Part shown: one piece after another, positions 10,104 to 24,623 of the stretch | How the letters are laid out: every line of letters begins with the position of its first letter | Position numbering within the stretch: position 1 is the stretch's first letter | Assembly (NCBI RefSeq): GCF_024714495.1 | Contig: NZ_JAMZMJ010000011.1 | Coordinates: 62,001-126,000 of the forward strand | DNA length: 64,000 bases | DNA from: Marinoscillum pacificum | Lineage (GTDB): Bacteria > Bacteroidota > Bacteroidia > Cytophagales > Cyclobacteriaceae | Direction: 5' to 3' | The notes under the pieces: model-generated | Seen by the model: the letters and a program-made list of their open reading frames with translations, nothing else | Told to the model about the DNA's origin: nothing | Database searches by the model: none | Made by a program: the position numbers and the translations under genes

Positions 10104-13100
10104 TTAAGATTTACTTAGAGCTAATCGCTTCAAATCCTTAGCAATTTGCTCACGGATAAAGTCCTTGTTTCGAGTTACGAACCAGTGATCACCATGAACT
10201 AACTCCTGTCTGAATTTTGCATTGGTATGTTCTTTCCAAGGCTCCATTTCTTCAGGAAGCGTCACCTCATCTTCTATAGCAGAGAAGACTGTGATCGGAA
10301 ACTCAAACTTAGGCTCATTTGCATAGTCGTAATCCAATAGCAAAGCCATATCTAATCGTAGAATTGGAAGGATTTTCTTCACATAATTCACATCATCGAT
10401 GTAAGTCATCAATCCAAGCAGCTTTTGCTCAGAGTTAGACGAAATCGCCGACTGCTTCAACACGTCTCTATTTTTCCATGTAATGGTCATCTGAGGCGCC
10501 ATCGTAGCTGAACTAAAGAAATGAACTGGCTCTTTGCCATGCTTACTCCTTAGTCTTCTGGTCATTTCGAACGCAATGATTCCTCCAAAACTGTGACCGT
10601 AGATCACAAAATCACCATCCAAAAGTGGTAACATCGCCTCTTCCAGGTCATTCAACAGTTTTGTGAAATCAGTGTACAACTCTTCATCTTTTCGGTTTTC
10701 ACGACCAGGAAGCTGAACTGCATACACATCGGTTCCTTCTGGAGCTTCGTACATGAAGTCGTTGAACATAGATGCCCCAGCGCCCATTGAGTGGAACATG
10801 AAGATTTTCAACTTCCCAGTTTGATCTTCATCGGTTTTACGATGCACAAACCACTTATTGATTACTTCAATATCCTCTTCAGTTGTAATACCCGAATCAT
10901 CCTGATGTGTTTCAACAGCTCCTCCACTAGCTGCACCTTGCAAGCTTTGCATGATGTGCTCAGAAACTTCTACGATACTTGGACCTTTAGATAATTTCAT
11001 CAATGGATAATTGAATTCAAGCTTTTGCAGAATCCAGTTTCTCAACTGATTCATCATCAATGAATCCAAACCAATAGCTGAAATGGATTTGTTTTCATCC
11101 AACTTATCTGGTGTTGTTCCAAGTATTCTAGCCAAAGCTTCCTTCAAACTCACTGCAAGAATATTCTTACCTTCTCCATTCGCAGCTATCAATTGATCTT
11201 TTAAGCTTTCACCACCTCCTTTGGAAGCACCCACTTTAAGATTCTCATCAGAAAGCAATTCTTTGAACTTAGTATCAGATCTCAAGTGATGGAAGAAGTC
11301 ACGGAATCTCAACCAGTCGATATTGGCAGCCATTCTTACTACATCACCTTCCAAAAGAATCCTTTCGATTTTGCTAGTCACCTGCTTCATGGTCAATGGC
11401 AACCATCCTTGATTTTCCAGAACGTTCAACACGTTGCCACCTTCTTTGGACATACCTGCATACTGACCAAGTACCCCAAGATTCACACTTTGAGCATGCA
11501 AACCTTTTGTTTTACGGTATTGCACCAATTTATCCAGGAAGTTGTTCGCAGAAGAATAGTTAGACTGACCAGGCAAACCGAATACCGCTGAAATAGAAGA
11601 CAAGGACAAGAAGAAGTCCAGATCCAAATCCTCTGTTGCTAAATGTAGATTCCATGCACCCATTGCTTTTGGAACAAAAACCTTAGCAAATAGCTCCTTA
11701 TCCAAGCGCTGGATGGTAGAATCTTGAAGCACCGCGGCACCATGCATCACACCACCAACTGGAGCTGATTCACTTACGCGGATCACCATTTCTTTCACTT
11801 CTTCTACAGAAGAAAGATCCAGTTTTTCGATCATGACATTCACACCTCGCGATTCCATCTGCTCAATCCAACCAAAATCATATTCTGATTTAGGTCCACT
11901 TCTACTCACCAATGCCAGATGTTTCGCGCCATTGTCAGCCATCCATTTGGCTAACTCCAAACCAAATCCACTTGCACCTCCAGTAATAATGTAACTCTTC
12001 TCATCTGAGAATCTCATTTTAGCCGCAGGCAATGCTGTAACTTCCTGATCTTCCATATTGAGTACTACTTTACCAATGTGCTTTCCTTTAGCTATAAAAT
12101 CTATAGCATCACGGATTTCATTGATTTTGAAAGACGTATATGGATGTGGCTGAACCTCTTTGTTTTCGAATAACTCAATCACATCTTTAAACAGTACAGC
12201 TGCTTTTTTAGGACGCTGAGCCATCAATCGATCAATATCAACTGCAAAGTAGCTCAAGTTGTCACCGAAGCGTTTCAACTGCAGACTCATATCATTGTAG
12301 ATATCCGTTTTCCCAATTTCTACAAATCGGCCAAAAGGTCTCAGACATTTGACACTTTGAATGATTGCCTTTCCACTTAATGAATTAAGGACTAAATCAA
12401 CACCTTCGCCATTGGTATCACGCATGATTTCATCATGGAATGCAATGGTTCTGCTATTGTAGACATTTTTCACTCCCATTTTGCGAAGCAGCTCACGCTT
12501 CTCTTCCGTTCCGGCTGTAGCATAAACCTCTATTCCTCGAAGTTGAGCCAAAGCAACAGCAGCCATACCAACTCCTCCAGTAGCGGAGTGTATCAACAGG
12601 CGCTCACCTTCATCCATTTGTCCAAGGTTGAACATACAGTGATAAGCTGTCAGATAAACAAGTGTAATGGTAGCACCTTCTTCAAATGAAATATGATCTG
12701 GAAGTTTCACCACACAATGTTTCGGGGTTACCACCTTTCCAGCAAATGAATTTGGTGAGAACGCAATCACCCGATCACCCGGCTTCACATGCTCTACTGA
12801 TTTACCCACTTTAGAAACAACGCCACTACACTCCAAACCAAGTTGTGCTCCTACAAGTCCACCAATGACACTTTCTTCAGTAAGTAAACCATTCAGGTTC
12901 AATACATCCTTAAAGTTCAAACCAGCAGCTTTCACATCGATTTCCACTTCAATATCACCTAATCCAAATGGAGCGATTTGCTGGAATGCAATACTATCCA
13001 GGATGCCTTTTTCTTTCAACATAGTCTGATAGTAGCTACCAGAAGCTGGCAAAGAAACTGAAGCCTTTTCCTGAGCACTGTCTTTATTGACGGTTTTTAG

Positions 13101-16100
13101 TCGCTTCACGAAAATTTCATCACCTCTGAAGGCAAAGTCCGTTTCATCTCCACCATTGGAAGTAGATGCAATCAATTTGGTTAATGACTCCAACTCCTGA
13201 GCATTCTCACGATGGCCTAAATCTGCAATCTTTACAGACGCCAATGGATATTCGTTGATCATTACTCGACCCAGTCCATAGCTCACAGACTCCAGCAAGT
13301 TGATATCTTTATCAGAATCAACAACGATATCAGCCTTTTCATTGATTAACCACACAGACATCTGCTGTTCTTCTTCAATGATCGCGTTGAAAATATTCAA
13401 CACCTTCCATGACAAATCAACAGTTGAGTCTTTCAGTGATTCACTTTGCTCAGAAAGTGGTAAAGTGACGATCACACGATTCAAAGTAGGATGTGCTTCT
13501 TTGATTTCTCTCAGAACACCTCGAACCACTTCTCTATCTTCATAATTCGTAATTCCACTATCAATAATGGTGGTGCCTTTTGCTTCTAGAGCAGTCTGGA
13601 ATGAAGACCATTCGAATCCTTTCTCACCAAACAAAAGCACCTTATTATTCGCAGGTTTAAACGCTAACTCTCCAGCTTTTTCCCACTCATATTCGTAACA
13701 TCCAGAATAAGCCAGATCCTGCTCGTTGCTTCTAGATCCTTCGATGTACTTACAATCCAGACCTTGAATTTCTGCAATCAACGTACCATTCTCATCAATA
13801 ATCCAGAAGTCACCTTTCAGATACTCTGAACTTGCTTCAGCTACTTGAATGTAACTGTACACATTTTTAGAAGTCGGCTTAGCATGCAGCTTGTATCGAT
13901 CGATATGAACAGGCAAATAAATACCACGTTCTTCATCGTCATCACTCATTTTCGCTGCGAAAATCGTATGCAAACACGCATCCAAAATTGCTGGGTGCAA
14001 GTAATAATCCTGAATTCCATATTCAAGAGACTCATGCAATTCAATCTTACCTAGAATCTCCTGATCTACCACCCAAAGGTTTTTGATCGCTTTGAAAGTT
14101 GGGCCGTAGAACAAACCGCTTTTCTTTAATTCCAAATACATTGGCTGTACAGGCAAACGATCATTTACTCGCTCCTGAATCGCTTTCAAATCCACAGGCT
14201 GCGACTCAAACTGATCAGCAAGAACGTTCATTTTACCATTAGAGTGCTTGACCCACTCGGCATCTGAATTGCTCTTATCACGACTTAAAATCCAATATTT
14301 CTCTTCATCAGAGTACACCTCGATTTTCACCTCGTACATCTCTCCTTCTTCTGGAAGGAATAGTGCATTTTCAAAATTGACATCTTCCAGGAATCCAAAC
14401 TGATCTTTGAAAGCGCTCTTAGCCGCAGCTGTAGCAATCTCTAAGTGACCAGTTCCAGGGAAAATGATCACATCGTCTACTCTGTGATCATCTATGTATG
14501 GATCCACATGACGATCCAGCAATACATCGAAAGTATAAGTAGTATCATTCACACCTGACTGACTGAAGCCAGAAATCAACGGGTGTGGTTTTTTCTCCAC
14601 TCTGCGTGCCTTATGCTCAGAAACCTCATACCAGAATGACTTAAGATCCCAGGTATATTTAGGAAGGTCTTTTAGTGCATTGCTTTCCGGATAAATAGCA
14701 TCCCAGTTAAGATCAAAACCTTTAGCATACAATGATCCTAAGGTCTGTAAGAATCTCAATTTCTCATCTTCTTTTCTCTTGATGGATGGGAAGATGCTAG
14801 CATTGATACCTTTCTTCTGGAATAACTCTTGAGCTCCTCCAGATAATGCAGGGTGAGGTCCAATCTCAATGAACAGGTCATAACCGTCATTGATCATTTC
14901 ATCCAATGCATTGGAGAAATAAACTGGCTGACGAACATTTTGATACCAATACTCACTCAATAAATGTGAGCCGTCCTCTTTTTTTCCAGTTACTGTTGAA
15001 TATAGATCCAACTCCGCCTTTTGAGGCTGAAGCTCTAACAATGAACTAATCAATTCATCTTTCAATGGCTCCATATGGTGTGAGTGGAATGGCACCGTCA
15101 CTCTCAAGAACTTATTGAAAATGTCATTCGCCTCCATCAACTCAGAGATTCGAATCAATGGACGCTCATCACCTGAAAGCACAATCATCTCAGGACCATT
15201 AACTGCTCCGATTGAAACCACATCCGAAACATCTTTGATCAATTCCTCCGCTTTCTCCTGAGTGACACTGATGGCCAACATTTTACCTTTTCCTGTGGCC
15301 GCATGCTGCCCTCTACTTCTATGGTAGATTACCTGAACAGCTTGCTCCAAAGTCAAAGCACCACTAGTATAGGCAGCTGCCACCTCGCCAATAGAGTGAC
15401 CAACCACACCTTGCGGCACCACTCCGTGTTTTTTCCAAAGCTCTACCAGGGCAATCTGAATCGCCATGATAGCAGGTTGAGCAATACGCGTATCGTTAAC
15501 ACGCGAGTTTTCCTCATCCTTGTTCATCTCTTCTAATAGAGACCAACCAGCGATTTCTTTAAAATATCCTTCTATCTTTTGAATTACTTGTTTGAACAAT
15601 GGTTCGGTAGCAATTAACTCCTGACCCATCGCATACCACTGTGGTCCCTGACCGGTAAACACAAAGGCTAACTTACTTGGCTTAACGTCAACTTCATCTT
15701 CCACAACCCCAGCTAGAACTGTACCTTCAATATAGGCATCAATTTTAGCAATGATATCAGCAGCATCTTTTCCAGCTATAGCGATTCGGTATTTCAAATC
15801 CGAACGATGCTTACCCACATTGTAGCAGATATCTCTAAGGTCGTGACCTGACTCTTGAATATACTCCTTATGCGATGTTAGCAGGTTTTTCAAAGCCTCT
15901 TTGGTCATCGCACTGGTATGGAACAAGTACTGATTTTCCTTTTCGGAAGGTTTAACCTCAGCAACAGAAGCCACGTACTCTTCTAAAACCACATGAGCAT
16001 TGGTACCACCAGCTCCAAATGAGTTTACACCACCAACTCTTGGACTTCCATCAACTTGATCCGGCCAGCTAGTATTTTCACTCACTACTTTAAGCTTCCA

Positions 16101-17273
16101 GTTTTCCAGATCAATTTTCGGATTGATTTTCTGGAAATGCAGGTTACCAGGAATCGCTTTGTTCTTAATTGACAATGCAAGTTTGATCAATCCACCAACA
16201 CCTGCAGCACCTTCCATATGCCCAATGTTACTTTTCACCGAGCCAATCATCAACGGATTGTTTCTGCTTTCTGTAGCAAATACATTGGAGAAAGAACGCG
16301 TCTCAATTGGATCACCGACAGGAGTACCTGTACCGTGCGCTTCAATGTATTGCAGCCTATCTGTATCTATGCCTGCCTGCTTGTAAGCATCACCCAACAT
16401 TTTTGTTTGGGAGGTCTCACTTGGCACCGTAAAACCTTCAGAGGTAAATCCATCAGAATTACATACAGTCGAGCGGATTACTCCATATATCTTGTTTCCG
16501 TCTTCCAGAGCTTTGTCAAGCGATTTTAAATAAACGACTCCAACTCCTTCACTACGCACATAACCATTGGCACGCTCGTCGAAAGACTTACAATAGCCAT
16601 CAGGGCTCAAGAAGTTTCCTTTGGACATCATCAAGGTAGATTCAGGATTGATGATGATGTTCACACCTCCAGCAAAAGCCGCATCTGCACTACCATCCCA
16701 AATACTATGACACGCCAGGTGAACAGCCACCAATGAACCCGAACAAGCCGTATCAATAGATACACTTGGACCTTTTAAATTATAAAAATAGGAAACACGG
16801 TTAGCGATAGCAGTTAATGAGCTACCCATAGGCGTATGTGGACTAATACCGTATCGGTTATCTTGCCCTACTTGCATGTCCCAATAATCATTGGTAAACG
16901 TGCTCATAAACACCGCCGTGTTGGTATTCTTCAATGCATCCAGCTTGTCACCTGCATCTTCCATTGACTCAAAAGTGGTCTGAAGCAATAGCCTTTGCTG
17001 AGGATCTATCCGCTCTGCCTCTTTTGGGAACACCTTGAAGAATTCATTATCAAAAAGATCTATACCTTCAACAAATCCACCCTTATTGTTTTTGATTTTA
17101 CCCGCCTTATTTGGATTCGGGTCATAAAATTCTTCTACATCCCAGCGATCCTTCGGCACTTCAGTCACGCCGTTTACTCCCTTGGTCAGCTGGTTCCAAA
17201 ACTGCTCAGGGCCATGCACCTGTCCAGGTGTATGGCAGCCGATGCCAACTATGGCAATCTCTGTCTTTTTCAT
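10104..17273 (-). CDS. Single-protein highly reducing type I polyketide synthase (KS-AT-DH-psiKR-ER-KR-ACP-TE)
   Basis: A 2,389-residue megasynthase with every reductive domain and all key residues. KS ~5-435: Cys177 in DTACSGS, His313 in EAHGTGTP, His352 in NIGHMEG. AT ~535-850: Ser627 in GHSIGE; the specificity motif VPFH (727-730) favours malonyl-CoA. DH ~895-1180: His930 and Asp1098 (HPAILDAC). A structural KR-like fold without a cofactor motif (~1200-1395). ER ~1425-1740: GGVGM. KR ~1755-1970: ITGGASGFG, Tyr1906, Asn1910. ACP: Ser2071 in GLDSL. C-terminal GrsT-like thioesterase: Ser2228 in GHSFGG, His2363. One module with full beta-carbon processing implies iterative synthesis of a reduced, fatty-acid-like chain released by its own thioesterase. 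No methyltransferase is seen. The product is unknown. Confidence 0.95.
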   Translation of the reverse strand: MKKTEIAIVGIGCHTPGQVHGPEQFWNQLTKGVNGVTEVPKDRWDVEEFYDPNPNKAGKIKNNKGGFVEGIDLFDNEFFKVFPKEAERIDPQQRLLLQTTFESMEDAGDKLDALKNTNTAVFMSTFTNDYWDMQVGQDNRYGISPHTPMGSSLTAIANRVSYFYNLKGPSVSIDTACSGSLVAVHLACHSIWDGSADAAFAGGVNIIINPESTLMMSKGNFLSPDGYCKSFDERANGYVRSEGVGVVYLKSLDKALEDGNKIYGVIRSTVCNSDGFTSEGFTVPSETSQTKMLGDAYKQAGIDTDRLQYIEAHGTGTPVGDPIETRSFSNVFATESRNNPLMIGSVKSNIGHMEGAAGVGGLIKLALSIKNKAIPGNLHFQKINPKIDLENWKLKVVSENTSWPDQVDGSPRVGGVNSFGAGGTNAHVVLEEYVASVAEVKPSEKENQYLFHTSAMTKEALKNLLTSHKEYIQESGHDLRDICYNVGKHRSDLKYRIAIAGKDAADIIAKIDAYIEGTVLAGVVEDEVDVKPSKLAFVFTGQGPQWYAMGQELIATEPLFKQVIQKIEGYFKEIAGWSLLEEMNKDEENSRVNDTRIAQPAIMAIQIALVELWKKHGVVPQGVVGHSIGEVAAAYTSGALTLEQAVQVIYHRSRGQHAATGKGKMLAISVTQEKAEELIKDVSDVVSIGAVNGPEMIVLSGDERPLIRISELMEANDIFNKFLRVTVPFHSHHMEPLKDELISSLLELQPQKAELDLYSTVTGKKEDGSHLLSEYWYQNVRQPVYFSNALDEMINDGYDLFIEIGPHPALSGGAQELFQKKGINASIFPSIKRKEDEKLRFLQTLGSLYAKGFDLNWDAIYPESNALKDLPKYTWDLKSFWYEVSEHKARRVEKKPHPLISGFSQSGVNDTTYTFDVLLDRHVDPYIDDHRVDDVIIFPGTGHLEIATAAAKSAFKDQFGFLEDVNFENALFLPEEGEMYEVKIEVYSDEEKYWILSRDKSNSDAEWVKHSNGKMNVLADQFESQPVDLKAIQERVNDRLPVQPMYLELKKSGLFYGPTFKAIKNLWVVDQEILGKIELHESLEYGIQDYYLHPAILDACLHTIFAAKMSDDDEERGIYLPVHIDRYKLHAKPTSKNVYSYIQVAEASSEYLKGDFWIIDENGTLIAEIQGLDCKYIEGSRSNEQDLAYSGCYEYEWEKAGELAFKPANNKVLLFGEKGFEWSSFQTALEAKGTTIIDSGITNYEDREVVRGVLREIKEAHPTLNRVIVTLPLSEQSESLKDSTVDLSWKVLNIFNAIIEEEQQMSVWLINEKADIVVDSDKDINLLESVSYGLGRVMINEYPLASVKIADLGHRENAQELESLTKLIASTSNGGDETDFAFRGDEIFVKRLKTVNKDSAQEKASVSLPASGSYYQTMLKEKGILDSIAFQQIAPFGLGDIEVEIDVKAAGLNFKDVLNLNGLLTEESVIGGLVGAQLGLECSGVVSKVGKSVEHVKPGDRVIAFSPNSFAGKVVTPKHCVVKLPDHISFEEGATITLVYLTAYHCMFNLGQMDEGERLLIHSATGGVGMAAVALAQLRGIEVYATAGTEEKRELLRKMGVKNVYNSRTIAFHDEIMRDTNGEGVDLVLNSLSGKAIIQSVKCLRPFGRFVEIGKTDIYNDMSLQLKRFGDNLSYFAVDIDRLMAQRPKKAAVLFKDVIELFENKEVQPHPYTSFKINEIRDAIDFIAKGKHIGKVVLNMEDQEVTALPAAKMRFSDEKSYIITGGASGFGLELAKWMADNGAKHLALVSRSGPKSEYDFGWIEQMESRGVNVMIEKLDLSSVEEVKEMVIRVSESAPVGGVMHGAAVLQDSTIQRLDKELFAKVFVPKAMGAWNLHLATEDLDLDFFLSLSSISAVFGLPGQSNYSSANNFLDKLVQYRKTKGLHAQSVNLGVLGQYAGMSKEGGNVLNVLENQGWLPLTMKQVTSKIERILLEGDVVRMAANIDWLRFRDFFHHLRSDTKFKELLSDENLKVGASKGGGESLKDQLIAANGEGKNILAVSLKEALARILGTTPDKLDENKSISAIGLDSLMMNQLRNWILQKLEFNYPLMKLSKGPSIVEVSEHIMQSLQGAASGGAVETHQDDSGITTEEDIEVINKWFVHRKTDEDQTGKLKIFMFHSMGAGASMFNDFMYEAPEGTDVYAVQLPGRENRKDEELYTDFTKLLNDLEEAMLPLLDGDFVIYGHSFGGIIAFEMTRRLRSKHGKEPVHFFSSATMAPQMTITWKNRDVLKQSAISSNSEQKLLGLMTYIDDVNYVKKILPILRLDMALLLDYDYANEPKFEFPITVFSAIEDEVTLPEEMEPWKEHTNAKFRQELVHGDHWFVTRNKDFIREQIAKDLKRLALSKS

Positions 17274-19632: not shown

Positions 19633-19658
19633 AAAAAGGGCCCCTTCCGGCCCTTTTT
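19633..19658 (-). terminator. Strong terminator overlapping the rtcB stop codon
   Basis: A perfect 10-bp stem AAAAAGGGCC / GGCCCTTTTT with loop CCTTCC. On the minus strand the 3' arm ends in a T-run. The rtcB stop codon (19657-19659) lies in the outer stem, so ribosomes reaching the stop cover the hairpin. It ends the SPFH-TPR-rtcB operon. Confidence 0.9.
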
Positions 19659-21078
19659 AATCTCTCTGAGCAAATTCATTGCCTCCGCACATTCTCACCA
19701 CTTTCGGTGTGAACGTTCCAAGCACATCTACCAGATCTACTTGTTGCTTCATCACTTGATGAATGTCCTTGTAGGCCTGAGGAGCTTCATCCAATCCAGA
19801 CCCAATCACCGTCACACCAGCTTTCTTGAGATGCTTTCTCACTTCATCTCTGGATAGACTTTGCTTGGCTCTTGTTCTGGACATGACTCTACCTGCTCCA
19901 TGCGATGCGGAATTGATGGAAGCTTGCTCCCCTTTTCCTCTCACAATAAAACCGGGTGCAGTCATGGATCCCGGAATAATTCCCAGCACGCCTTTTCCTG
20001 CAGGAGTTGCTCCTTTTCTATGAACAATGATTTCCTCACCATCAGCATCCTGCTCTTTCCAGGCAAAGTTGTGATGGTTCTCCACCAGCGCTAGAGGTTG
20101 TTCGCCCAAGGCTTTAGCCATTCGTTCATAGATCTGATGATGACAAGCAGATGCATAGTCCCCTGCCAGATTCATCGCAATCCAGTACTCCTGACCATCT
20201 TCGGTATCCAAATCCAACCAGGCCAAATGCTTCGCCTCCGATGGAAGTTTACACTTATCCATAGCCAGTTTGGTATAGTGTCGAGCGATGTTCGCACCTA
20301 AACCTCTGGAACCAGAATGTGACAATACAGCTAGGTATTTACCCTTTGGTAATTTCAAGTCATTCTCATCACTTAGAAGCTCCGCTACTCCAAACTCTAC
20401 GAAGTGGTTTCCGCCACCAGATGAACCGATCTGAGAATACGCTCTATCCTTCAAGGATTTCAGAATATTGATCTCACCGAAAGACTTGTTCTCCAAGACT
20501 TCATGATCCATCGGTCTTCTGAAAGTCGCATTTCCAAATCGAGTGTTATCCTCCAGCATTTGCTTGAAGTCGGAGACTGCATCATATTGAAACAATGGAG
20601 GCAGATCATAAATGGTCATGCACATTCTACAACCAATATCCACTCCTACACCATAAGGAATCACCGCGTTTTTAGTTGCTAATACACCACCAATCGGCAG
20701 ACCATATCCCTGATGCGCATCCGCCATTAACGCTCCAGAGTGTGTCACTGGCAATTTCATTGCCACTTCCATCTGATGAACCGCACCCTGTTCGATTCCT
20801 TCAGCACCATACGTCTGGTACGGAATTCTTGAGGCATTCAACTCCAGCATTTTGTTGTGTTCGGTTTTGATAATCAAACCTTTAGCAACAGGTCCAAGAG
20901 ACTCATGCTTTTGGTAAAACGCCGGATTTTCCAACACTCTCTGCAATAGCTCTAGCTTATGCTTCTTACTTTTTCCTTTGAAATGAGCTTCCAACACCTT
21001 CATGGCCGTCCCGATCACTTTTCCTTCGGGGTAACCAAGTTGTCTCAGCTCTTTTCCTGTCAACTTTGTGGTTGCCAT
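19657..21078 (-). CDS. rtcB: RtcB-family RNA ligase
   Basis: A 473-residue GTP- and Mn-dependent ligase that joins RNA 3'-phosphate or 2',3'-cyclic phosphate ends to 5'-OH ends, the type of break left by tRNA-cleaving toxins. The active-site set is complete: Asp147 and Cys150 in GVDIGC, His225 in GGGNHFVEFG, His254 in LSHSGSRG, His335/336 in the NHH motif, and the guanylylated His393 in SASHGAGR. Length is normal. It is the last gene of an SPFH-TPR-rtcB operon, overlapping the TPR gene by 19 nt. No RtcA cyclase, archease or RtcR regulator is encoded nearby, which sets this unit apart from the proteobacterial rtc operon. A degenerate tRNA-like array lies upstream on the same strand. Confidence 0.95.
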   Translation of the reverse strand: MATTKLTGKELRQLGYPEGKVIGTAMKVLEAHFKGKSKKHKLELLQRVLENPAFYQKHESLGPVAKGLIIKTEHNKMLELNASRIPYQTYGAEGIEQGAVHQMEVAMKLPVTHSGALMADAHQGYGLPIGGVLATKNAVIPYGVGVDIGCRMCMTIYDLPPLFQYDAVSDFKQMLEDNTRFGNATFRRPMDHEVLENKSFGEINILKSLKDRAYSQIGSSGGGNHFVEFGVAELLSDENDLKLPKGKYLAVLSHSGSRGLGANIARHYTKLAMDKCKLPSEAKHLAWLDLDTEDGQEYWIAMNLAGDYASACHHQIYERMAKALGEQPLALVENHHNFAWKEQDADGEEIIVHRKGATPAGKGVLGIIPGSMTAPGFIVRGKGEQASINSASHGAGRVMSRTRAKQSLSRDEVRKHLKKAGVTVIGSGLDEAPQAYKDIHQVMKQQVDLVDVLGTFTPKVVRMCGGNEFAQRD

Positions 21079-21584
21079 TTTTTAAATATTGTTTTGAATC
21101 GCTTCATGCGAATTCGTTTTACATCTTTTTTCAATTCTGCTGAGTCGTTATTGTCAGTAGACTCCATCAAAGCTTCTCTATAATATTTGATAGCTTCAGG
21201 AAATTTACCCTGACGTTCAGCAATCTTGCCCATGGTTCGCAGGATGTACTCCTGATCCAATTGAGCATTTTTTCGAGCTATTAATAGTTTGCTTTGCAAA
21301 AACGCATAACGTTTTTGAGTCAATAGCAACTCCATCAATCCATTCCATGCATATTCATAGTCCGGATCGAAATGGATCGCAAGCAAGTAGTGTCGCTCGG
21401 ATAACCCATAGTTTTCCTGGTGATAATGATACATCCAGGCCAAAGTGCTGTGCAACTTCGGATAACCCGGTTCATCACATAGCGCCGAGTCAATCAAGCC
21501 TCGTGCTTTCACATACTCTCCTTCATAAATGGCATCTATGGCGATATCTATTAATTGCTCTATGGTTTGATCTACAATTTTCAT
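21060..21584 (-). CDS. TPR-repeat protein of the RtcB operon
   Basis: A 174-residue soluble protein made mostly of tetratricopeptide-like helical pairs: YEGEYVKARGLIDSALCDEP (~19-38), LAWMYHYHQENYGLSERHYLLAI, and near the C-terminus QGKFPEAIKYYREAL. The last 25 residues are basic (KKDVKRIRMKRFKTIFKKW), which could contact RNA. It has no signal peptide or catalytic motif. The 3' end overlaps rtcB by 19 nt, so the two are translationally coupled. It is likely an adaptor joining RtcB to the SPFH scaffold or to the RNA substrate; that role is inferred from the operon only. Confidence 0.82.
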   Translation of the reverse strand: MKIVDQTIEQLIDIAIDAIYEGEYVKARGLIDSALCDEPGYPKLHSTLAWMYHYHQENYGLSERHYLLAIHFDPDYEYAWNGLMELLLTQKRYAFLQSKLLIARKNAQLDQEYILRTMGKIAERQGKFPEAIKYYREALMESTDNNDSAELKKDVKRIRMKRFKTIFKKWQPQS

Positions 21585-21731: not shown

Positions 21732-22847
21732 TTATTTAGCTGGAGCGAAAATCTCTCTGAGTTGGTTGACCACATGTCCGTTTCCGGAAACAGTGATCTG
21801 ACCAATTTTCTCAGCGATCTTTTCTACATACTCCATCTCTTTGAGTTTCCACAACATTTCATTGTCTTCCATCAATTTTGCAGTGTTGAGCAAGCTCCGA
21901 GTAGAAGCTGTTTCCTCCCGTCTCATGATCACATTGGCCTGCGCTTTTTTCTGCGCCACCAACACTTGATTCATGATTTCTTTCACCTCGCCTGGCAAGA
22001 TGATATCTCGCACACCACAATCTTGCACCACAACTCCAAGATCCGCAGCTTTCGCCTGAATCTCTTTCATCACGAACGCTGAGATAGACTCCTTTCTTTC
22101 AAGGGTTTCATCCAGCGTGTAGGTTCCGATAAAGTCTCGAAGCGCCAGCTGCACCAACACATAGAGTTGTTTTTCATAGTCTTTGTTGTCAATGACAGCT
22201 TTTGTCACATTATTGACCTTGTATTGCACCATGAAGTTCACTCGAAGTGCGGCTTTATCTCCAGTCAGGATTTCCTGACCATTGATTTCCATTTGTCTAC
22301 TTCTCAGATCCACTTTTACCACTTTTAATGGCGTACTGTTTTTCCAGAAGTAATAGACACCTGCACCTAGCTCCCGATCGAATTTACCGTCCACGAAAAG
22401 CATTCCCTTTTCGTAATCTTCTACTGTAAGAATTCGGACATACCGCGCTACTTCTACTTTTTCCAAAATAGCAATTGGCACATCTTCTTTAATATCGACA
22501 GAAGTCAAATCCAGGATCTGAAATCTGAAGGCAATCAATCCTTTCCAATATGCATATCGACCTGGGATCAAGACATGCTTGAAGTTTTCATTTTCATAAA
22601 CCAGGCATAGCTCACCATCTTTTACATTGACAATGTCCAATAGTGATGCTAGCTCCTCATCCTTGAGCAACACATCCAGATTTACTGGCGCGTGAAATGG
22701 CTGAGCCATATTAAATTCACGAACAGTCTCCCATGGAGACAACCAGTAAACACCTGCTGTGATTACTCGCTGGTAATCACCTCCGCGAAACACTAGTCCC
22801 ACGTAGCCTACGTTGATTTTTACTCGATTCAACATTTGTTTACACAT
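21732..22847 (-). CDS. SPFH/band-7 (slipin-like) protein of the RtcB operon
   Basis: A 371-residue protein. The N-terminal half has three short beta-rich repeats with a common pattern (VGYVGLVFRGGDYQRVITAG, VKDGELCLVYENENFKHVLI, VEDYEKGMLFVDGKFDRELG), each ending in aromatic W/Y. A band-7 domain follows (~170-300: LRSRQMEINGQEILTGDKAA, VVVQDCGVRDIILPGEVKEI), then an Ala/Glu-rich helix (AQANVIMRREETASTRS). Unlike classical slipins it shows no N-terminal membrane helix. SPFH proteins form ring or cage assemblies, and this class recurs next to RtcB in other bacteria as far as I recall. It is the first protein gene after the tRNA-like array. An alternative start is the Met at residue 5. Confidence 0.88.
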   Translation of the reverse strand: MCKQMLNRVKINVGYVGLVFRGGDYQRVITAGVYWLSPWETVREFNMAQPFHAPVNLDVLLKDEELASLLDIVNVKDGELCLVYENENFKHVLIPGRYAYWKGLIAFRFQILDLTSVDIKEDVPIAILEKVEVARYVRILTVEDYEKGMLFVDGKFDRELGAGVYYFWKNSTPLKVVKVDLRSRQMEINGQEILTGDKAALRVNFMVQYKVNNVTKAVIDNKDYEKQLYVLVQLALRDFIGTYTLDETLERKESISAFVMKEIQAKAADLGVVVQDCGVRDIILPGEVKEIMNQVLVAQKKAQANVIMRREETASTRSLLNTAKLMEDNEMLWKLKEMEYVEKIAEKIGQITVSGNGHVVNQLREIFAPAK

Positions 22848-23042
22848 TTAAATAATTAAACATGTGATTCCAGCTTTTTTACCCCGATCTTTCAGATCAC
22901 CCTTAGCCAGGCGCCCCTAAATGGGAAAAGCTTGAATCAATTTGCTCTATTTAGGCCGGGCCGACGTTCGGTTGGGGTGAATCAAGTTGATTCAACACCA
23001 GACCCAGAAGAGCTATCACTATTGGCCAATAATATTTTTAAT
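22848..23042 (-). promoter_or_regulatory. Structured leader upstream of the SPFH gene
   Basis: The ~195 nt before the SPFH ATG are rich in inverted repeats on the transcribed strand. GCTCT near 23013 can pair with AGAGC near 22945. Inside lie TGAATC / GATTCA arms, CCGA-ACG-TCGG and GGCC-C-GGCC. Nearer the gene, GAT-CTGAAAG-ATC forms a small hairpin whose 7-nt loop has the form of a tRNA-Phe anticodon loop (U33, GAA, A37), preceded by CGCC/GGTG arms around a TGG-containing loop, like a D-arm. No T-arm follows, so a tRNA origin is weakly supported. A regulatory or processed 5' UTR is the broader reading. Confidence 0.4.
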
Positions 23043-23109
23043 TGTCATCCCGCCAGCACAAGAAAGATCTCTCCTGCGCCTGCCAGTCGGCAGACAGGTC
23101 GAGATGACA
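23043..23109. repeat. Palindromic intergenic repeat, divergent short copy 3
   Basis: A 67-bp relative of the repeats at 21625-21709 and 23771-23856. It starts TGTCATCCCG and ends TCGAGATGACA, so the terminal arms pair as in the longer copies. The middle is different and contains GCCTGCCAGTCGGCAG, a small palindrome that resembles the CGCCTGCCGGCGAGGCAGG motif at 51061 and 52821. Confidence 0.6.
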
Positions 23110-23137
23110 AATCGTTTTCATTTAAAAGAAAATGATC

Positions 23138-23350
23138 TCAGCGGTCCATCTGAAAATTTGGCGGAGTATCAAATTGAGCAGATATTTCAATGGACAGTTC
23201 ATTCATGCTTCTCTTCCCTGCTTTCAACCACACAGAAGCAAACCTGAAGTACCCAATGATCAACCCACGATATCCTTTACACTCAAAGCCATTTTCAGAC
23301 TTTTCAGTAAGACTATGACGGTGAACCTTACCAAGGATCACTGCGATCAT
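23138..23350 (-). CDS. Possible small protein between the tRNA-like array and the SPFH leader
   Basis: A 70-codon frame from the ATG at 23350, on the operon strand, with no recognised domain. Its C-terminal half (MNELSIEISAQFDTPPNF) has a protein-like composition with mixed charged and aromatic residues. No ribosome site or family match supports it. It could be a remnant of a transposed gene or chance coding in structured RNA. It is the only candidate gene in 23110-23394. Confidence 0.25.
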   Translation of the reverse strand: MIAVILGKVHRHSLTEKSENGFECKGYRGLIIGYFRFASVWLKAGKRSMNELSIEISAQFDTPPNFQMDR

Positions 23351-23394
23351 TTTCTATAGGCGCCTTTTGTAGAGTAGGCATCTCTTTTTTGAAT

Positions 23395-23460
23395 GATGAA
23401 TTTTAAGCTCATCTTCCACATCCAAATTGTGGTGCTCTACCAACTGAGCTACAGTATCCA
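23395..23460 (-). ncRNA. tRNA-Gln(UUG)-like element lacking a proper acceptor and T-arm
   Basis: The minus strand reads as a nearly perfect tRNA 5' half. The D-arm is GCTC-AGTTGGTA-GAGC (23434-23449). A perfect anticodon stem CCACA/TGTGG encloses the 7-nt loop ATTTGGA, with U33, anticodon UUG (23423-23425) and purine 37. The 3' half is degenerate: where the T-arm should be, GATGA and TCATC pair around a loop without TTCGA, and no strand complements the acceptor CAGTATC side. It cannot be a functional tRNA. It is the promoter-distal member of the tRNA-like array. Confidence 0.75.
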
Positions 23461-23473
23461 ACCTTACAGGCAC

Positions 23474-23542
23474 GATAAAGATGGGATTCGAACCCACGAC
23501 ATTCACAGAGTTGTTGTTCTAACCAGACTGAACTATCCTAAC
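23474..23542 (-). ncRNA. tRNA-His(GUG)-like element with a shortened anticodon arm
   Basis: The minus strand shows a D-arm GTTC-AGTCTGGTTA-GAAC (23516-23533), an anticodon-loop sequence CTGTGAA with U33 and GUG (23504-23506), and a perfect T-arm GTGGG-TTCGAAT-CCCAT (23481-23497). After the loop only TGTC separates it from the T-arm; a normal tRNA has about ten nt here, so the 3' strand of the anticodon stem appears deleted. The acceptor (GTTAGGA / CTTTATC) pairs only in part and no CCA is encoded. The total is 69 nt. It resembles tRNA-His in the anticodon and the TGTC-GTGGG junction. Confidence 0.75.
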
Positions 23543-23548
23543 TTTTAC

Positions 23549-23626
23549 ATCAGGAGAGGGAATCGAACCCTCGACCTACAACGTGATTGGAAACCCTCCA
23601 GCCAAAGCAGCATATCTCCACCTAAT
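23549..23626 (-). ncRNA. tRNA-like element with good acceptor and T-arm (Gly-UCC or Trp-CCA type loop)
   Basis: The minus-strand acceptor ATTAGGT pairs with TCCTGAT at 6 of 7 positions. The T-arm GAGGG-TTCGATT-CCCTC (23556-23572) is perfect. The D region lacks a 4-bp stem. The stretch TTTCCAAT can be read as an anticodon loop with UCC or CCA, but its flanks form at most two pairs. The spacer to the His-like element is 6 nt, as in tandem tRNA genes. So it keeps the 3' half and the acceptor while the D and anticodon arms are lost. Confidence 0.7.
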
Positions 23627-23689
23627 GGCGGACACTATGGTGCCTTACAGAAACACTCATCTGGTCTTTGTCCTTTCGGTTTTTCCAGT

Positions 23690-23759
23690 GGGAGTAGTAA
23701 GATTCGAACTTACTTCAAAATGATCCCTATGAATACAGCAATCATTTTCCGACATACCT
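23690..23759 (-). ncRNA. tRNA-like element: intact T-arm, remodelled anticodon arm
   Basis: The minus strand has a perfect T-arm GTAAG-TTCGAAT-CTTAC (23697-23713) followed by the acceptor-like TACTCCC. The middle is replaced by an 8-bp stem AAAATGAT/ATCATTTT (23717-23724, 23741-23748) closing a 16-nt loop that contains TTCATAG, a CAU-type anticodon context. No D-arm is visible and the proposed acceptor pairs at 4 of 7 positions. The ~60-nt spacer to the next element holds CTGG...CCAG arms around a CC-GAAA-GG tetraloop hairpin. Confidence 0.65.
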
Positions 23760-23770
23760 TAGTGTAAGGA

Positions 23771-23856
23771 TGTCATTCCGACATTAGGAGGAATCTTCCT
23801 TGAATTATGACCTCCACAATTCTTTTAAGAAAGATTTCTCGTTCCTCGAAATGACA
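23771..23856. repeat. Palindromic intergenic repeat, copy 2
   Basis: An 86-bp copy of the element at 21625-21709: the same TGTCATTCCGA start, GGAGGAATCT arm, GATTTCTCGTTCCTCGAAATGA end and terminal pairing, with a diverged centre. It is inserted within the tRNA-like array, between the 23690-23759 element and the 15-bp hairpin. Three copies within 2.3 kb and none noticed elsewhere in the window indicate local spread or retention. Confidence 0.8.
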
Positions 23857-23885
23857 GCTTTCCAAGATAACTGCACTCCCATTTA

Positions 23886-23929
23886 GATCGTCGCATGGAT
23901 TTCACTATCACCACAATCCATGGACGACC
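23886..23929 (-). ncRNA. Long hairpin in the tRNA-like array
   Basis: A 15-bp stem: outer 7 bp (plus strand GATCGTC / GACGACC, one G-U) and inner 8 bp (CATGGATT / AATCCATG) separated by one bulged base, around a 13-nt loop. No T-run follows, so it is not a terminator. It is the most stable hairpin of the array by eye. It may be a processing signal, a small RNA or a further remodelled anticodon arm; it has no D- or T-arm. Confidence 0.55.
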
Positions 23930-23934
23930 TCTCG

Positions 23935-24005
23935 CTTCTATAAACAGAGCTTTTACAAACATCACTGAGCGAACGAAACTCAGCTTGTGGTTCCCACCCA
24001 CTCTC
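23935..24005 (-). ncRNA. Weak tRNA-like element (D-arm-like stem plus one hairpin)
   Basis: The minus strand has GTTC...GAAC arms like a D-stem, with a GG-containing 13-nt loop. Six nt later comes a perfect 5-bp hairpin CTGAG/CTCAG with a 9-nt loop that contains TTCG. A three-arm tRNA fold is not possible without more stems. It is included because it continues the array in the same orientation; on its own it would not be called. Confidence 0.3.
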
Positions 24006-24055
24006 TGAACTTAAGGAAGACACTCGTTCTGCCTCCTCCCAAGCGAATTGCAGCC

Positions 24056-24152
24056 GATGATAGATTCGAATCGCAGCGGCGAACCGTTACCACCCCCAGA
24101 GCCAAACCTACCCGGCAGGATTCTGGTATCCTAACCCTTAGACCAATCAACT
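24056..24152 (-). ncRNA. tRNA-Glu-like element with the anticodon loop apparently deleted
   Basis: On the minus strand GTCTAAGGGTTAGGATACCAG closely follows the D-arm and start of the anticodon stem of bacterial tRNA-Glu. Where CCAG would continue through a UUC-containing loop to CCTGG, it runs directly into AATCCTG, as if the loop had been removed. A GATTCGAATC T-loop-like core lies ~60 nt further, within GCCG...CGGC arms. It is the promoter-proximal element of the array. The Glu comparison is from memory of the consensus, not an alignment. Confidence 0.5.
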
Positions 24153-24161
24153 TTAAAACAA

Positions 24162-24197
24162 AGAACCCCGACCCGCCAGTTGGCGAATCGGGGTTCT
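24162..24197 (-). terminator. Strong hairpin before the tRNA-like array
   Basis: A 10-bp stem AGAACCCCGA / TCGGGGTTCT encloses an inner CGCCA-GT-TGGCG hairpin. On the minus strand it is followed by TTGTTTTAAAG. It ends the short unit upstream and lies 10 nt before the first tRNA-like element. Read-through or processing here would release the array RNA. Confidence 0.75.
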
Positions 24198-24218
24198 CAG
24201 TGCACATAACAGTATATG

Positions 24219-24368
24219 TTACACAAAGTATCCTTTCATTCGCAACTGCGATTTTCCATCATTTTCATCTCTGTCTGCACGTAATTCCGACTGGACATAC
24301 TTCTCCCATCGACTTTCAGTCGCAAACAAAATATTATTCTGCACGATATGTATTTTCACCAAATCCAT
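24219..24368 (-). CDS. Possible 49-residue protein upstream of the tRNA-like array
   Basis: A short frame from the ATG at 24368 between two hairpin terminators. The product is hydrophilic and charge-rich (YVQSELRADRDENDGKSQ) with no recognisable domain. The placement, terminator on each side and same strand as the array, is the only support; a non-coding RNA with incidental frame is equally possible. Confidence 0.3.
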   Translation of the reverse strand: MDLVKIHIVQNNILFATESRWEKYVQSELRADRDENDGKSQLRMKGYFV

Positions 24369-24378
24369 AAGCAACAAA

Positions 24379-24404
24379 AAACCCAGACTGGAAGGCCTGG
24401 GTTT
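24379..24404 (-). terminator. Rho-independent terminator
   Basis: An 8-bp stem AAACCCAG / CTGGGTTT with a 10-nt loop. On the minus strand it is followed by a run of T (TTTTTTG). It lies 22 nt after the stop of the 30-codon frame at 24427-24519. Confidence 0.75.
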
Positions 24405-24426
24405 CAATATCTTTAGTAATGATAAA

Positions 24427-24519
24427 TCAACTTTCACCAGGCCAATATCCATCATAGCATACTAATAGCATCCCTTCCGGGTTACTATCTGCTTTTATAT
24501 GTTGAATAAATTGACGCAT
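24427..24519 (-). CDS. Possible 30-residue leader peptide
   Basis: A short frame from the ATG at 24519, ending in DGYWPGES, placed ~70 nt downstream of a predicted promoter and directly before a terminator. The promoter-peptide-terminator order resembles an attenuator leader for the transcription unit that continues into the tRNA-like array. There is no homology evidence, and coding potential is unproven. Confidence 0.3.
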   Translation of the reverse strand: MRQFIQHIKADSNPEGMLLVCYDGYWPGES

Positions 24520-24592
24520 TTGTTCTATTTTTAATTGTGATGCAATAATCGGAAAAGGATTTTTAAAAACCAAATATTATTTTGAATACTAA

Positions 24593-24623
24593 CAAATATT
24601 CTTCTTTCGCTAACACACTCAAA
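24593..24623 (-). promoter_or_regulatory. Predicted promoter for the leader / tRNA-like array unit
   Basis: On the minus strand TTTG (24623-24620) is followed after 19 nt by AATATTTG (24600-24593), 7/8 to the Bacteroidota -7 box TAnnTTTG. Transcription would begin near 24588 and run through the small units toward the array and the SPFH-TPR-rtcB operon. No sigma-54 type box, as used by RtcR-controlled operons, was noticed. Confidence 0.45.

What the first reader, a model, noticed from the sequence alone, without database searches (positions are those of the whole stretch)
23395..24152. Array of degenerate tRNA-like elements upstream of an SPFH-TPR-RtcB operon
Seen: on the minus str., in the same direction as the operon, at least four elements keep tRNA parts to the base (perfect T-arms with TTCGA at 23481, 23556 and 23697; canonical D-arms at 23434 and 23516; a perfect UUG anticodon arm at 23416-23432), yet none can fold as a full tRNA and none encodes CCA. 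Known: RtcB rejoins broken RNA such as cleaved tRNAs; in proteobacteria, rtc operons can carry tRNA-mimicking Y RNAs and are switched on by tRNA fragments. Inference: these RNAs may be decoys, sensors or substrates of the neighbouring system, a Bacteroidota counterpart to the RtcR/Y-RNA design. Whether it has been described I cannot check. Alternative: relics of a phage-type tRNA cluster.
Basis: partly seen in the sequence, partly recalled or inferred. Interest (0 to 1): 0.92.

Follow-up and report, generated by a model that had tools for sequence, protein, structure and literature searches.

The report
tRNA-mimicking leader of RNA-repair operon
The scrambled tRNA pieces are mostly not wreckage: they fold into back-to-front tRNA look-alikes inside a conserved RNA that sits in front of an RNA-repair gene set in many bacteria, so cells may carry a built-in tRNA dummy as damage sensor or decoy.

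Summary
Read T-arm, acceptor, D-arm, the pieces at 23582-23428 (minus strand) form two circularly permuted tRNA cloverleafs, the first perfect. They lie in a ~0.5-kb RNA (5' three-way junction, permuted units, anticodon-arm hairpins, pseudoknot, 3' domain) upstream of an SPFH gene. De novo folding of 25 sequences gives 39 pairs, 32 with compensatory changes; covariation exceeds all 500 shuffles. A covariance model hits 68 of 68 SPFH loci from other genomes; a protein-blind search of 390 genomes gave 30 fetched loci, all with this SPFH gene, 25 of them new. RtcB is nearby in 45 of 68 loci. Several loci add tRNA arrays, spare in the one genome checked. Five SPFH relatives outside Bacteroidota also have tRNA-like elements upstream, one beside rtcR (84, 88, 93). 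No Ro60 or RtcR was found in the window's genome. Best reading: a tRNA-mimic leader acting as sensor or decoy of an SPFH-RtcB repair system, similar in principle to YrlA/RtcR. Function is inferred. The T-arm at 23697 is a broken tRNA-Tyr; 24152-24050 lies in an insertion absent from the sister species.

The parts
23603..23670 (-). 5' domain of the RNA: predicted three-way junction P0 (23670-23666 with 23607-23603), P1 (23660-23637), P2 (23635-23612)
   Evidence: covarying helices 1-3 in A1; coordinates; 5' domain 0.93 identical to sister L031
23510..23582 (-). Permuted tRNA unit 1: anticodon-stem 3' strand, variable loop, T-arm, acceptor 3' strand, 6-nt loop, acceptor 5' strand, UA, D-arm, anticodon-stem 5' strand
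   Evidence: 21 of 21 pairs; unconstrained fold of the unit; covarying helices 4-7; R1 hit 23498-23676, 147.3 bits (window was in the training set)
23428..23507 (-). Permuted tRNA unit 2, same order, 15-nt acceptor loop; 5/7 acceptor and 4/5 anticodon-stem pairs
   Evidence: weaker than unit 1: unconstrained fold alters the acceptor
23416..23432 (-). Anticodon-arm-like hairpin CCACA-AUUUGGA-UGUGG (UUG); its 5' strand is shared with unit 2's anticodon stem
23396..23412 (-). Second anticodon-arm-like hairpin AUGAG-CUUAAAA-UUCAU (UAA)
   Evidence: hairpins with other anticodons in related loci
23362..23385 (-). H-type pseudoknot: S1 AGAG/CUCU, S2 GCCU/AGGC, A-rich third loop
23110..23361 (-). 3' domain of the RNA (approximate borders); conserved end motif around 23167-23124
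   Evidence: 0.91 identical to L031 over 180 nt; TTCCG...GATGG...CTTTCTTTT-like end near SPFH in relatives
21732..22847 (-). SPFH/Band 7 gene, 371 aa: three beta repeats, SPFH domain, long helix in the model; constant partner of the RNA
   Evidence: Pfam; A3; AF2 model; Foldseek
21060..21584 (-). TPR protein, 174 aa; TPR proteins are also found in 21 of 68 related loci
19657..21078 (-). RtcB-family RNA ligase; the only RtcB match in this genome
   Evidence: Pfam E 1.2e-80
23688..23713 (-). 3' end (T-arm and acceptor strand) of a broken tRNA-Tyr(GTA) gene; not part of the RNA
   Evidence: homologous to the intact tRNA-Tyr in L031
23771..23856 (-). Repeat-like insertion that splits the tRNA-Tyr gene; its 5' acceptor and D side remains near 23881-23862
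   Evidence: alignment with L031, coordinates
24050..24152 (-). D-arm- and T-arm-like relics inside an insertion absent from sister L031; not part of the RNA

Best explanation
Shown: minus strand 23670 to about 23120 encodes a conserved structured RNA whose core is a variable cassette of circularly permuted tRNA mimics plus anticodon-arm-like hairpins, followed by an H-type pseudoknot; it lies upstream of, and is almost strictly linked to, one family of SPFH proteins, often with RtcB, sometimes with TPR proteins and tRNA genes. Inferred: it is transcribed as the 5' leader (or a processed 5' product) of the SPFH-TPR-RtcB transcript and presents tRNA look-alikes, with acceptor ends closed and anticodon side open, to whatever cuts or binds damaged tRNA. 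Most likely mechanism: under tRNA-cleaving stress the mimics are engaged or cut, which alters the pseudoknot/3' domain before the SPFH start and changes expression of the SPFH-RtcB repair genes; RtcB can reseal cut tRNAs and, in the same way, the leader, which would reset the sensor. The RNA would thus do in Bacteroidota the job that the RtcR CARF protein does in Pseudomonadota.
For: Structure: 39 pairs predicted de novo on 25 sequences, 32 with compensatory changes; 95.8% of cells paired, covariation 0.632 against 0.245 +/- 0.013 shuffled (0/500) and at most 0.163 when slid. Re-pairing strands across the 37 of 69 loci where a T-arm followed by a D-arm could be placed: acceptor >=6/7 in 21 (re-paired mean 4.0, max 9), anticodon stem >=4/5 in 29 (mean 14.4, max 20; the variable-loop length, 4 or 5, was chosen by pairing, which favours the real set). 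Pseudoknot: S1 anchored in 49 of 69 loci, S2 paired in 38 of these (permuted mean 7.9, max 16); 4 of the 38 (L045, L049, L062, L077) are other hairpins or misplaced. Linkage: model R1 hits 68 of 68 SPFH loci on the strand and side of SPFH, 44 of them not in training; 10 of 11 strong SPFH loci (three of the ten are the window or loci already in the set; the 11th is cut by its contig end) and 0 of 19 loci of other Band 7 proteins; 30 of 30 loci fetched by the RNA-only order search carry the SPFH gene, 25 of them new. RtcB: downstream on the same strand in 35 of 68, anywhere in the stretch in 45 of 68. No terminator-like site between pseudoknot and SPFH on the minus strand. Outside Bacteroidota: rtcR beside SPFH in Citrobacter, RtcB directly downstream in L170-L172, T-arms (4 or 5 pairs) within 400 nt upstream in 5 of 5 where 0.086 are expected, sigma-54-like TGGCAC boxes upstream of the tRNA-like elements in 4 of 4 pseudomonadotal loci, read by eye against a recalled consensus. 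Literature (passages): RtcR operon regulated by damaged tRNAs (PMC7790460); in Anabaena a 26-tRNA operon, rtcB and a slipin gene are co-repressed by TrcR and repression is relieved by translation stress (PMC10272220).
Against: No transcript data; leader versus separate small RNA is undecided. Cutting, binding and switching are untested. RtcB was not found in 23 of 68 loci (some stretches are cut short), so the RNA is tied to SPFH rather than to RtcB. One R1 hit at E 3.3e-13 (L143) has no SPFH and no ARAGORN tRNA in its stretch and is unexplained. Unit 1 is missing in L083, L087, L088, L092. 20 of 69 loci have no strict anticodon loop, and the Burkholderia element has a GAAA tetraloop in that place, so an anticodon bait cannot be general. 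Some flavobacterial loci score only 45-51 bits, while matches elsewhere in genomes, many covering only the T-acceptor-D half, reach 61 bits; there only position supports them. The energy fold of 23582-23340 does not keep unit 2. The E. coli leader folds only slightly better than shuffles (z -1.71, 9 of 200 at least as good), and R1 is not significant in E. coli or Citrobacter.
Confidence: 0.5

Rival explanations
1. The RNA acts in trans as the partner of the SPFH protein in a ribonucleoprotein (Y RNA/Ro60-like or vault-like), and its place upstream only secures co-expression.
For: Pairing with SPFH rather than RtcB; in L044, L058, L067, L073 and L081 no RtcB was found and the next long ORF after SPFH is on the other strand. 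The AF2 model shows three beta repeats before the SPFH domain, and major vault protein is among the Foldseek matches (E 6.6e-10 for 9z4w; TMq 0.44 for 6bp7, the highest TMq in the 50 rows shown).
Against: Best E-values are stomatin and HflK, not vault protein; TMq is low throughout (0.28-0.44 in the rows shown), with large rmsd for the vault matches. No RNA-binding data. The VIA-align comparison was not available.
Confidence: 0.25
2. The RNA is a decoy that titrates tRNA-cleaving nucleases; no switching is involved.
For: The cassette is the least conserved part in 16 of 24 sister pairs (means 0.88 / 0.65 / 0.78 for 5' domain, cassette, 3' domain; 3 further pairs with L077 have a misplaced border); window versus L031 0.93 / 0.47 / 0.91. 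Variable position 34 in otherwise fixed anticodon loops. Hughes et al. name YrlA as a possible competitive inhibitor of the nuclease (passage of PMC7790460).
Against: In several sister pairs the cassette is as conserved as the scaffold (L069-L070, L080-L084, L074-L078, L086-L091). Anticodon loops are missing in part of the family; the conserved pseudoknot and 3' domain are not explained.
Confidence: 0.2
3. Relics of a tRNA or phage-type tRNA cluster under decay.
For: The tRNA-Tyr next to it is such a relic; real tRNA arrays lie at this place in many related loci, and adjacent tRNA genes there match the permuted half of the model, which suggests that the mimics arose from tandem tRNA genes.
Against: Compensatory changes throughout, model hit in 68 of 68 loci, no SPFH match in 50,697 phage records at E 1e-10.
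Confidence: 0.03
4. Genuine circularly permuted tRNA genes that mature into working tRNAs.
For: The order of parts is permuted.
Against: Unit 1 has no anticodon loop: its two anticodon strands are the open ends; the acceptor is closed by a loop without CCA.
Confidence: 0.02

Closest known systems
YrlA, bacterial Y RNA of rsr-yrlBA-rtcBA operons (Rfam RF02553)
   Same: T-arm > acceptor > D-arm order, tRNA mimicry, RNA-repair operon with RtcB (PMC7790460 passages)
   Different: Scores 30.5 and 26.1 bits against a cut-off of 69; no Ro60/TROVE match in the genome; two units in tandem, a 5' junction, a pseudoknot and a 3' domain outside that model's match; constant partner is SPFH
RtcR-controlled RNA-repair loci of Pseudomonadota
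   Same: Full-length SPFH relative beside rtcR in Citrobacter; an SPFH gene in the P. aeruginosa rtc locus (passage; family not tested); tRNA-like elements upstream of SPFH
   Different: No RtcR match in the window's genome; the Bacteroidota RNA is larger and its units permuted
Anabaena TrcR regulon (trn operon, rtcB, slipin)
   Same: Spare tRNA operon, rtcB and a slipin gene in one stress regulon (PMC10272220 passages)
   Different: Genes scattered, protein repressor; no tRNA-mimic RNA in the passages read
tmRNA (RF00023)
   Same: tRNA-like part plus pseudoknots; tmRNA is reported as the most frequent RtcB target (passage of PMC11090510)
   Different: 19.7 bits against 47; the genome has its own tmRNA elsewhere
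Vault particle (major vault protein)
   Same: Beta repeats plus SPFH-like domain in the AF2 model; Foldseek matches
   Different: 371 aa, three repeats; assembly untested

Membership tests
Y RNA / YrlA (RF02553) | Permuted tRNA-like module | tested here: met
Y RNA / YrlA (RF02553) | Rfam gathering score of 69 bits | tested here: not met
   30.5 and 26.1 bits
Y RNA / YrlA (RF02553) | Ro60 (TROVE) protein in the genome | tested here: not met
   no match to PF05731 in G000 (listed as 100% complete); control rings in Deinobacterium
Y RNA / YrlA (RF02553) | Binding to Ro60 | not testable with these tools
   needs experiment; no Ro60 match in this genome
tRNA gene | Full cloverleaf in ordinary order | tested here: not met
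   ARAGORN 0 in window; one Rfam match at 29.9 bits with cut-off 29, with three pairs marked non-standard; unit 1 folds permuted
Circularly permuted tRNA gene | Anticodon arm and acceptor ends that can mature to a tRNA | tested here: not met
   unit 1 has an open anticodon side and a closed acceptor; processing itself not tested
tmRNA (RF00023) | Model score of 47 bits | tested here: not met
   19.7 bits; own tmRNA on contig C26
RtcR-type regulated rtc operon | RtcB in the operon | tested here: met
RtcR-type regulated rtc operon | RtcR activator in the genome | tested here: not met
   no PF06956 match; control rings in E. coli
RtcR-type regulated rtc operon | RtcA cyclase | not tested
   not searched
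Vault particle | MVP-like fold of the protein | tested here: inconclusive
   E 6.6e-10 but TMq about 0.4; stomatin and HflK have better E-values

The most novel reading that the evidence does not exclude
A self-resetting damage gauge: the leader shows a quickly changing set of tRNA look-alikes to tRNA-cutting enzymes; cutting it switches on SPFH and RtcB, and RtcB reseals both the tRNAs and the leader, which turns the system off. The beta-repeat SPFH protein (no N-terminal membrane segment seen by eye; not predicted with a tool) may form a small vault-like cage that holds the RNA, so that a tRNA-like RNA, an SPFH cage and an RNA ligase make a bacterial vault-like repair particle.
Probability: 0.15. 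Interest if true: 0.96.

Novelty: new variant of a known kind. Interest (0 to 1): 0.86.

Why it matters
It points to an apparently undescribed structured RNA in Bacteroidota, with possible relatives in Pseudomonadota and Clostridia, that mimics tRNA by circular permutation and is tied to an SPFH protein of unclear role. It would give RNA-repair operons without RtcR a plausible sensor, link three designs (RtcR/YrlA, TrcR/trn, this one) by one principle, and make the question of what bacterial RtcB systems respond to testable in harmless strains: a stretch of tRNA-like leader plus SPFH start is covered to at least 80% in 1623 of 5426 complete E. coli genomes, and the laboratory strain E. coli W carries the leader (318 of 320 nt identical to L168) and the SPFH-nucleotidyltransferase pair.

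Tried and rejected
Rejected: decaying tRNA cluster (covariation); ordinary tRNAs; tmRNA; classical Y RNA with Ro60. Phage origin of the SPFH gene found no support (no match in phages at E 1e-10). Anticodon bait as a general rule was tested and does not hold (20 of 69 loci without a strict loop; Burkholderia tetraloop).

Led nowhere or partly: an anchor search for the CCATAGTG motif found it with my pattern in 23 of 69 loci, so I went over to a covariance model. A first sister-pair comparison (74 pairs) had wrong borders in many pairs and was replaced (24 pairs), in which 3 pairs are still unreliable. The sigma-70 promoter scan is no better than shuffles (3 found, mean 3.7). Of the four terminator-like sites in 22850-24620 (mean in shuffles 1.3), one is unit 2's T-arm itself and one lies at 23984-23964. 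In one search, 311 of 390 genomes have an R1 match at E <= 0.001; I counted only the 31 hits above 65 bits and did not check what the weaker ones are (many cover only the T-acceptor-D half, as adjacent tRNA genes would). In one search, 18 of 395 genomes match at E <= 1e-12; 17 have SPFH in the fetched stretch, L143 has not. Papers: passages only, of PMC10272220, PMC7790460, PMC7824862, PMC2636767, PMC11090510, PMC9650030, PMC13086221, PMC9938897; the rest were search listings. Chen et al. 2014 (Y RNAs mimic tRNAs) and Burroughs and Aravind 2016 (RNA repair systems) are recalled and not held, so I cannot say whether either mentions this RNA. That I found no description in print rests on the searches.
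Full report
1. What is there. ARAGORN finds no tRNA. Rfam gives one tRNA match just over its cut-off and, with permissive settings, two partial YrlA matches. YrlA is a tRNA mimic in which the T-arm precedes the D-arm. Read in that order, two units appear: 23582-23510 and 23507-23428. A scanner for this arrangement finds these two and no other in 64 kb on both strands; 4 of 1000 shuffles of the region give any unit and none a score of 18 or more. Unit 1 is perfect, and folded alone it takes the permuted cloverleaf; unit 2 is weaker, and in the energy fold of 23582-23340 most of it pairs otherwise.

2. It is a conserved RNA. 68 loci with SPFH relatives were fetched. Upstream of SPFH they share a 5' motif, units, hairpins and a 3' part. 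On 25 sequences (24 loci and the window) RNAalifold, without being told, finds a 5' three-way junction and all four helices of the permuted tRNA: 39 pairs, 32 with compensatory changes. Against 500 shuffles all five measures are out of reach, and sliding the partners removes the signal. A caution: the structure was derived from the same alignment. Two tests that re-pair strands across loci agree. Acceptor strands: 21 of 37 loci against a mean of 4.0 (max 9); anticodon strands: 29 of 37 against 14.4 (max 20), here with a small bias for the real set, since the variable-loop length was chosen by pairing (32 of 69 loci could not be placed). Pseudoknot: 38 of 49 anchored loci paired against a mean of 7.9 (max 16 in 1000 permutations); 4 of the 38 are other hairpins or misplaced, and 20 of 69 loci had no anchor.

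3. Linkage. Covariance model R1 hits the window at 147.3 bits and all 68 loci, each on the strand and side of SPFH; 44 of the 68 were not in the training set. Of the 11 strong SPFH loci it hits 10 (three of these are the window or loci already in the set; the 11th starts at its contig end), and none of 19 loci with other Band 7 proteins at a meaningful score (L026 has 9 bits, E 0.96). Searched without any protein in 390 genomes of the order, 31 hits exceed 65 bits; the 30 that were fetched all have SPFH next to them; 25 of the 30 are new, five are the window or loci. In a phylum sample 18 of 395 genomes match at E <= 1e-12, all in the window's class; one of these, L143, has no SPFH. RtcB lies downstream on the same strand in 35 of 68 loci, upstream on the same strand in 9, and anywhere in 45; a TPR protein in 21.

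4. Anatomy. Behind unit 2 come hairpins with anticodon-arm geometry. Selected by stem alone, 29 hairpins in 27 loci keep U33 (27 of 29), C32 (23), A37 (25) and A38 (25), while position 34 is G 11, U 8, C 5, A 5; a second class of 24 hairpins has U33 in 23. The window has two, with UUG and UAA. Then follows an H-type pseudoknot. No terminator-like site lies between the pseudoknot and SPFH on this strand, whereas two strong ones lie upstream at 24198-24161 and 24405-24378. In L097 the 3' motif runs up to the SPFH start as aligned, which leaves little room for a separate promoter; hence the leader reading, unproven.

5. The cassette turns over. Against sister L031 the 5' and 3' parts are 0.93 and 0.91 identical, the cassette 0.47, with its permuted order kept in unit 1. 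Over 24 sister pairs the mean identities are 0.88 (5' domain), 0.65 (cassette) and 0.78 (3' domain); the cassette is lowest in 16 of 24; 3 of the other 8 have misplaced borders, and in some pairs the cassette is as conserved as the rest. L045 and L049 share a nearly identical leader (0.99 / 0.99 / 0.95) with SPFH DNA of 84.5% identity, while L044 and L045, with SPFH of 98.6%, have different cassettes: exchange between lineages is likely.

6. tRNA arrays. Of 68 loci, 37 have at least one ARAGORN tRNA upstream on the same strand within 3.6 kb and 19 have five or more; a few of these calls are probably units of the RNA itself. The 210 calls are rich in Tyr, Glu, Gln, Asp, Phe, Arg(ACG), Leu, Lys, Ser, His, Asn and Cys, with no Ala or Thr, 1 Gly and 3 Val. 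Many of these are known targets of anticodon nucleases (recalled). In the Winogradskyella echinorum genome of L050, the one genome checked, all 10 array anticodons are also found among 32 other tRNAs. Anabaena has a comparable spare tRNA operon, co-regulated with rtcB and a slipin gene (passages of PMC10272220; also changing together in PMC9938897).

7. Beyond Bacteroidota. SPFH relatives at 33-43% identity occur in nine plasmid-collection records, seven of them covering at least 80% of the query; five were opened. RtcB follows directly in L170 (Burkholderia), L171 (labelled Subdoligranulum) and L172 (Photobacterium); rtcR precedes, divergent, in Citrobacter L169; a nucleotidyltransferase follows in Citrobacter and E. 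coli. All five have T-arms of 4 or 5 pairs within 400 nt upstream (expected 0.086); R1 gives E 4e-8, 1e-5 and 0.003 in L172, L171, L170 and nothing significant in L168, L169. By eye, a T-arm is followed by a closed acceptor-like hairpin in L168, L169 and L171, while L170 and L172 have ordinary-order tRNA-like bodies; sigma-54-like boxes (recalled consensus) lie upstream in the four pseudomonadotal loci. Rfam gives two tRNA matches in the L172 leader and none above cut-off in the leaders of the other four. The E. coli leader folds only slightly better than shuffles. A 461-nt stretch of leader and SPFH start is covered to at least 80% in 1623 of 5426 complete E. coli genomes, and E. coli W has the leader. 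These relatives share the principle; common descent of the RNA is not shown.

8. The protein. AF2 (pLDDT 82.4, pTM 0.57) shows three five-strand repeats, an SPFH domain and a long helix. Best Foldseek matches are stomatin and HflK; major vault protein appears at E 6.6e-10 with TMq 0.40, and the highest TMq in the 50 rows shown (0.44) is a vault protein. By sequence profile only stomatin-type, QmcA and HflK chains match. This is a hint only.

9. Reading. The RNA is a tRNA mimic tied to an SPFH-centred system that often includes RtcB. It works like YrlA in presenting a permuted tRNA, but is not a member of RF02553 by score and lacks the Ro60 partner. That it senses or baits tRNA damage is inferred from the gene neighbours, from the changing cassette and from the RtcR parallel; nothing here shows transcription, cutting or switching.

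Noticed in passing
window 24606-24210 (minus): About 400 nt, 95-99% identical to sister L031, with a terminator-like hairpin inside (24405-24378) and another just after (24198-24161); coding not tested; may encode further small RNAs ahead of the leader.
   Followed up: no
L044:7307-7888, L058:6888-7448: A TPR protein gene stands upstream of the tRNA array on the same strand, so TPR, tRNA array, RNA and SPFH may form one transcription unit.
   Followed up: partly
L045, L049, L044: Near-identical leaders in lineages with diverged SPFH genes, and different cassettes in lineages with near-identical SPFH: probable recombination of the leader.
   Followed up: partly
L143: Strong R1 match (61.1 bits) in a genome of the same class with no SPFH and no ARAGORN tRNA in 3.1 kb: a stand-alone relative of the RNA or a false match.
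   Followed up: partly
L173:7961-8887 (E. coli W): A zeta toxin family gene lies convergent to the slipin-nucleotidyltransferase pair.
   Followed up: no
L031 (PBTY01000038.1): The closest relative is titled Rickettsiales, although its SPFH is 97% identical to this window's and nearly all other relatives are titled Bacteroidota; the title looks wrong.
   Followed up: no
window 10104-17273 (minus): A 2389-aa ORF that reads like a type I polyketide synthase with thioesterase (judged from its letters, not searched).
   Followed up: no
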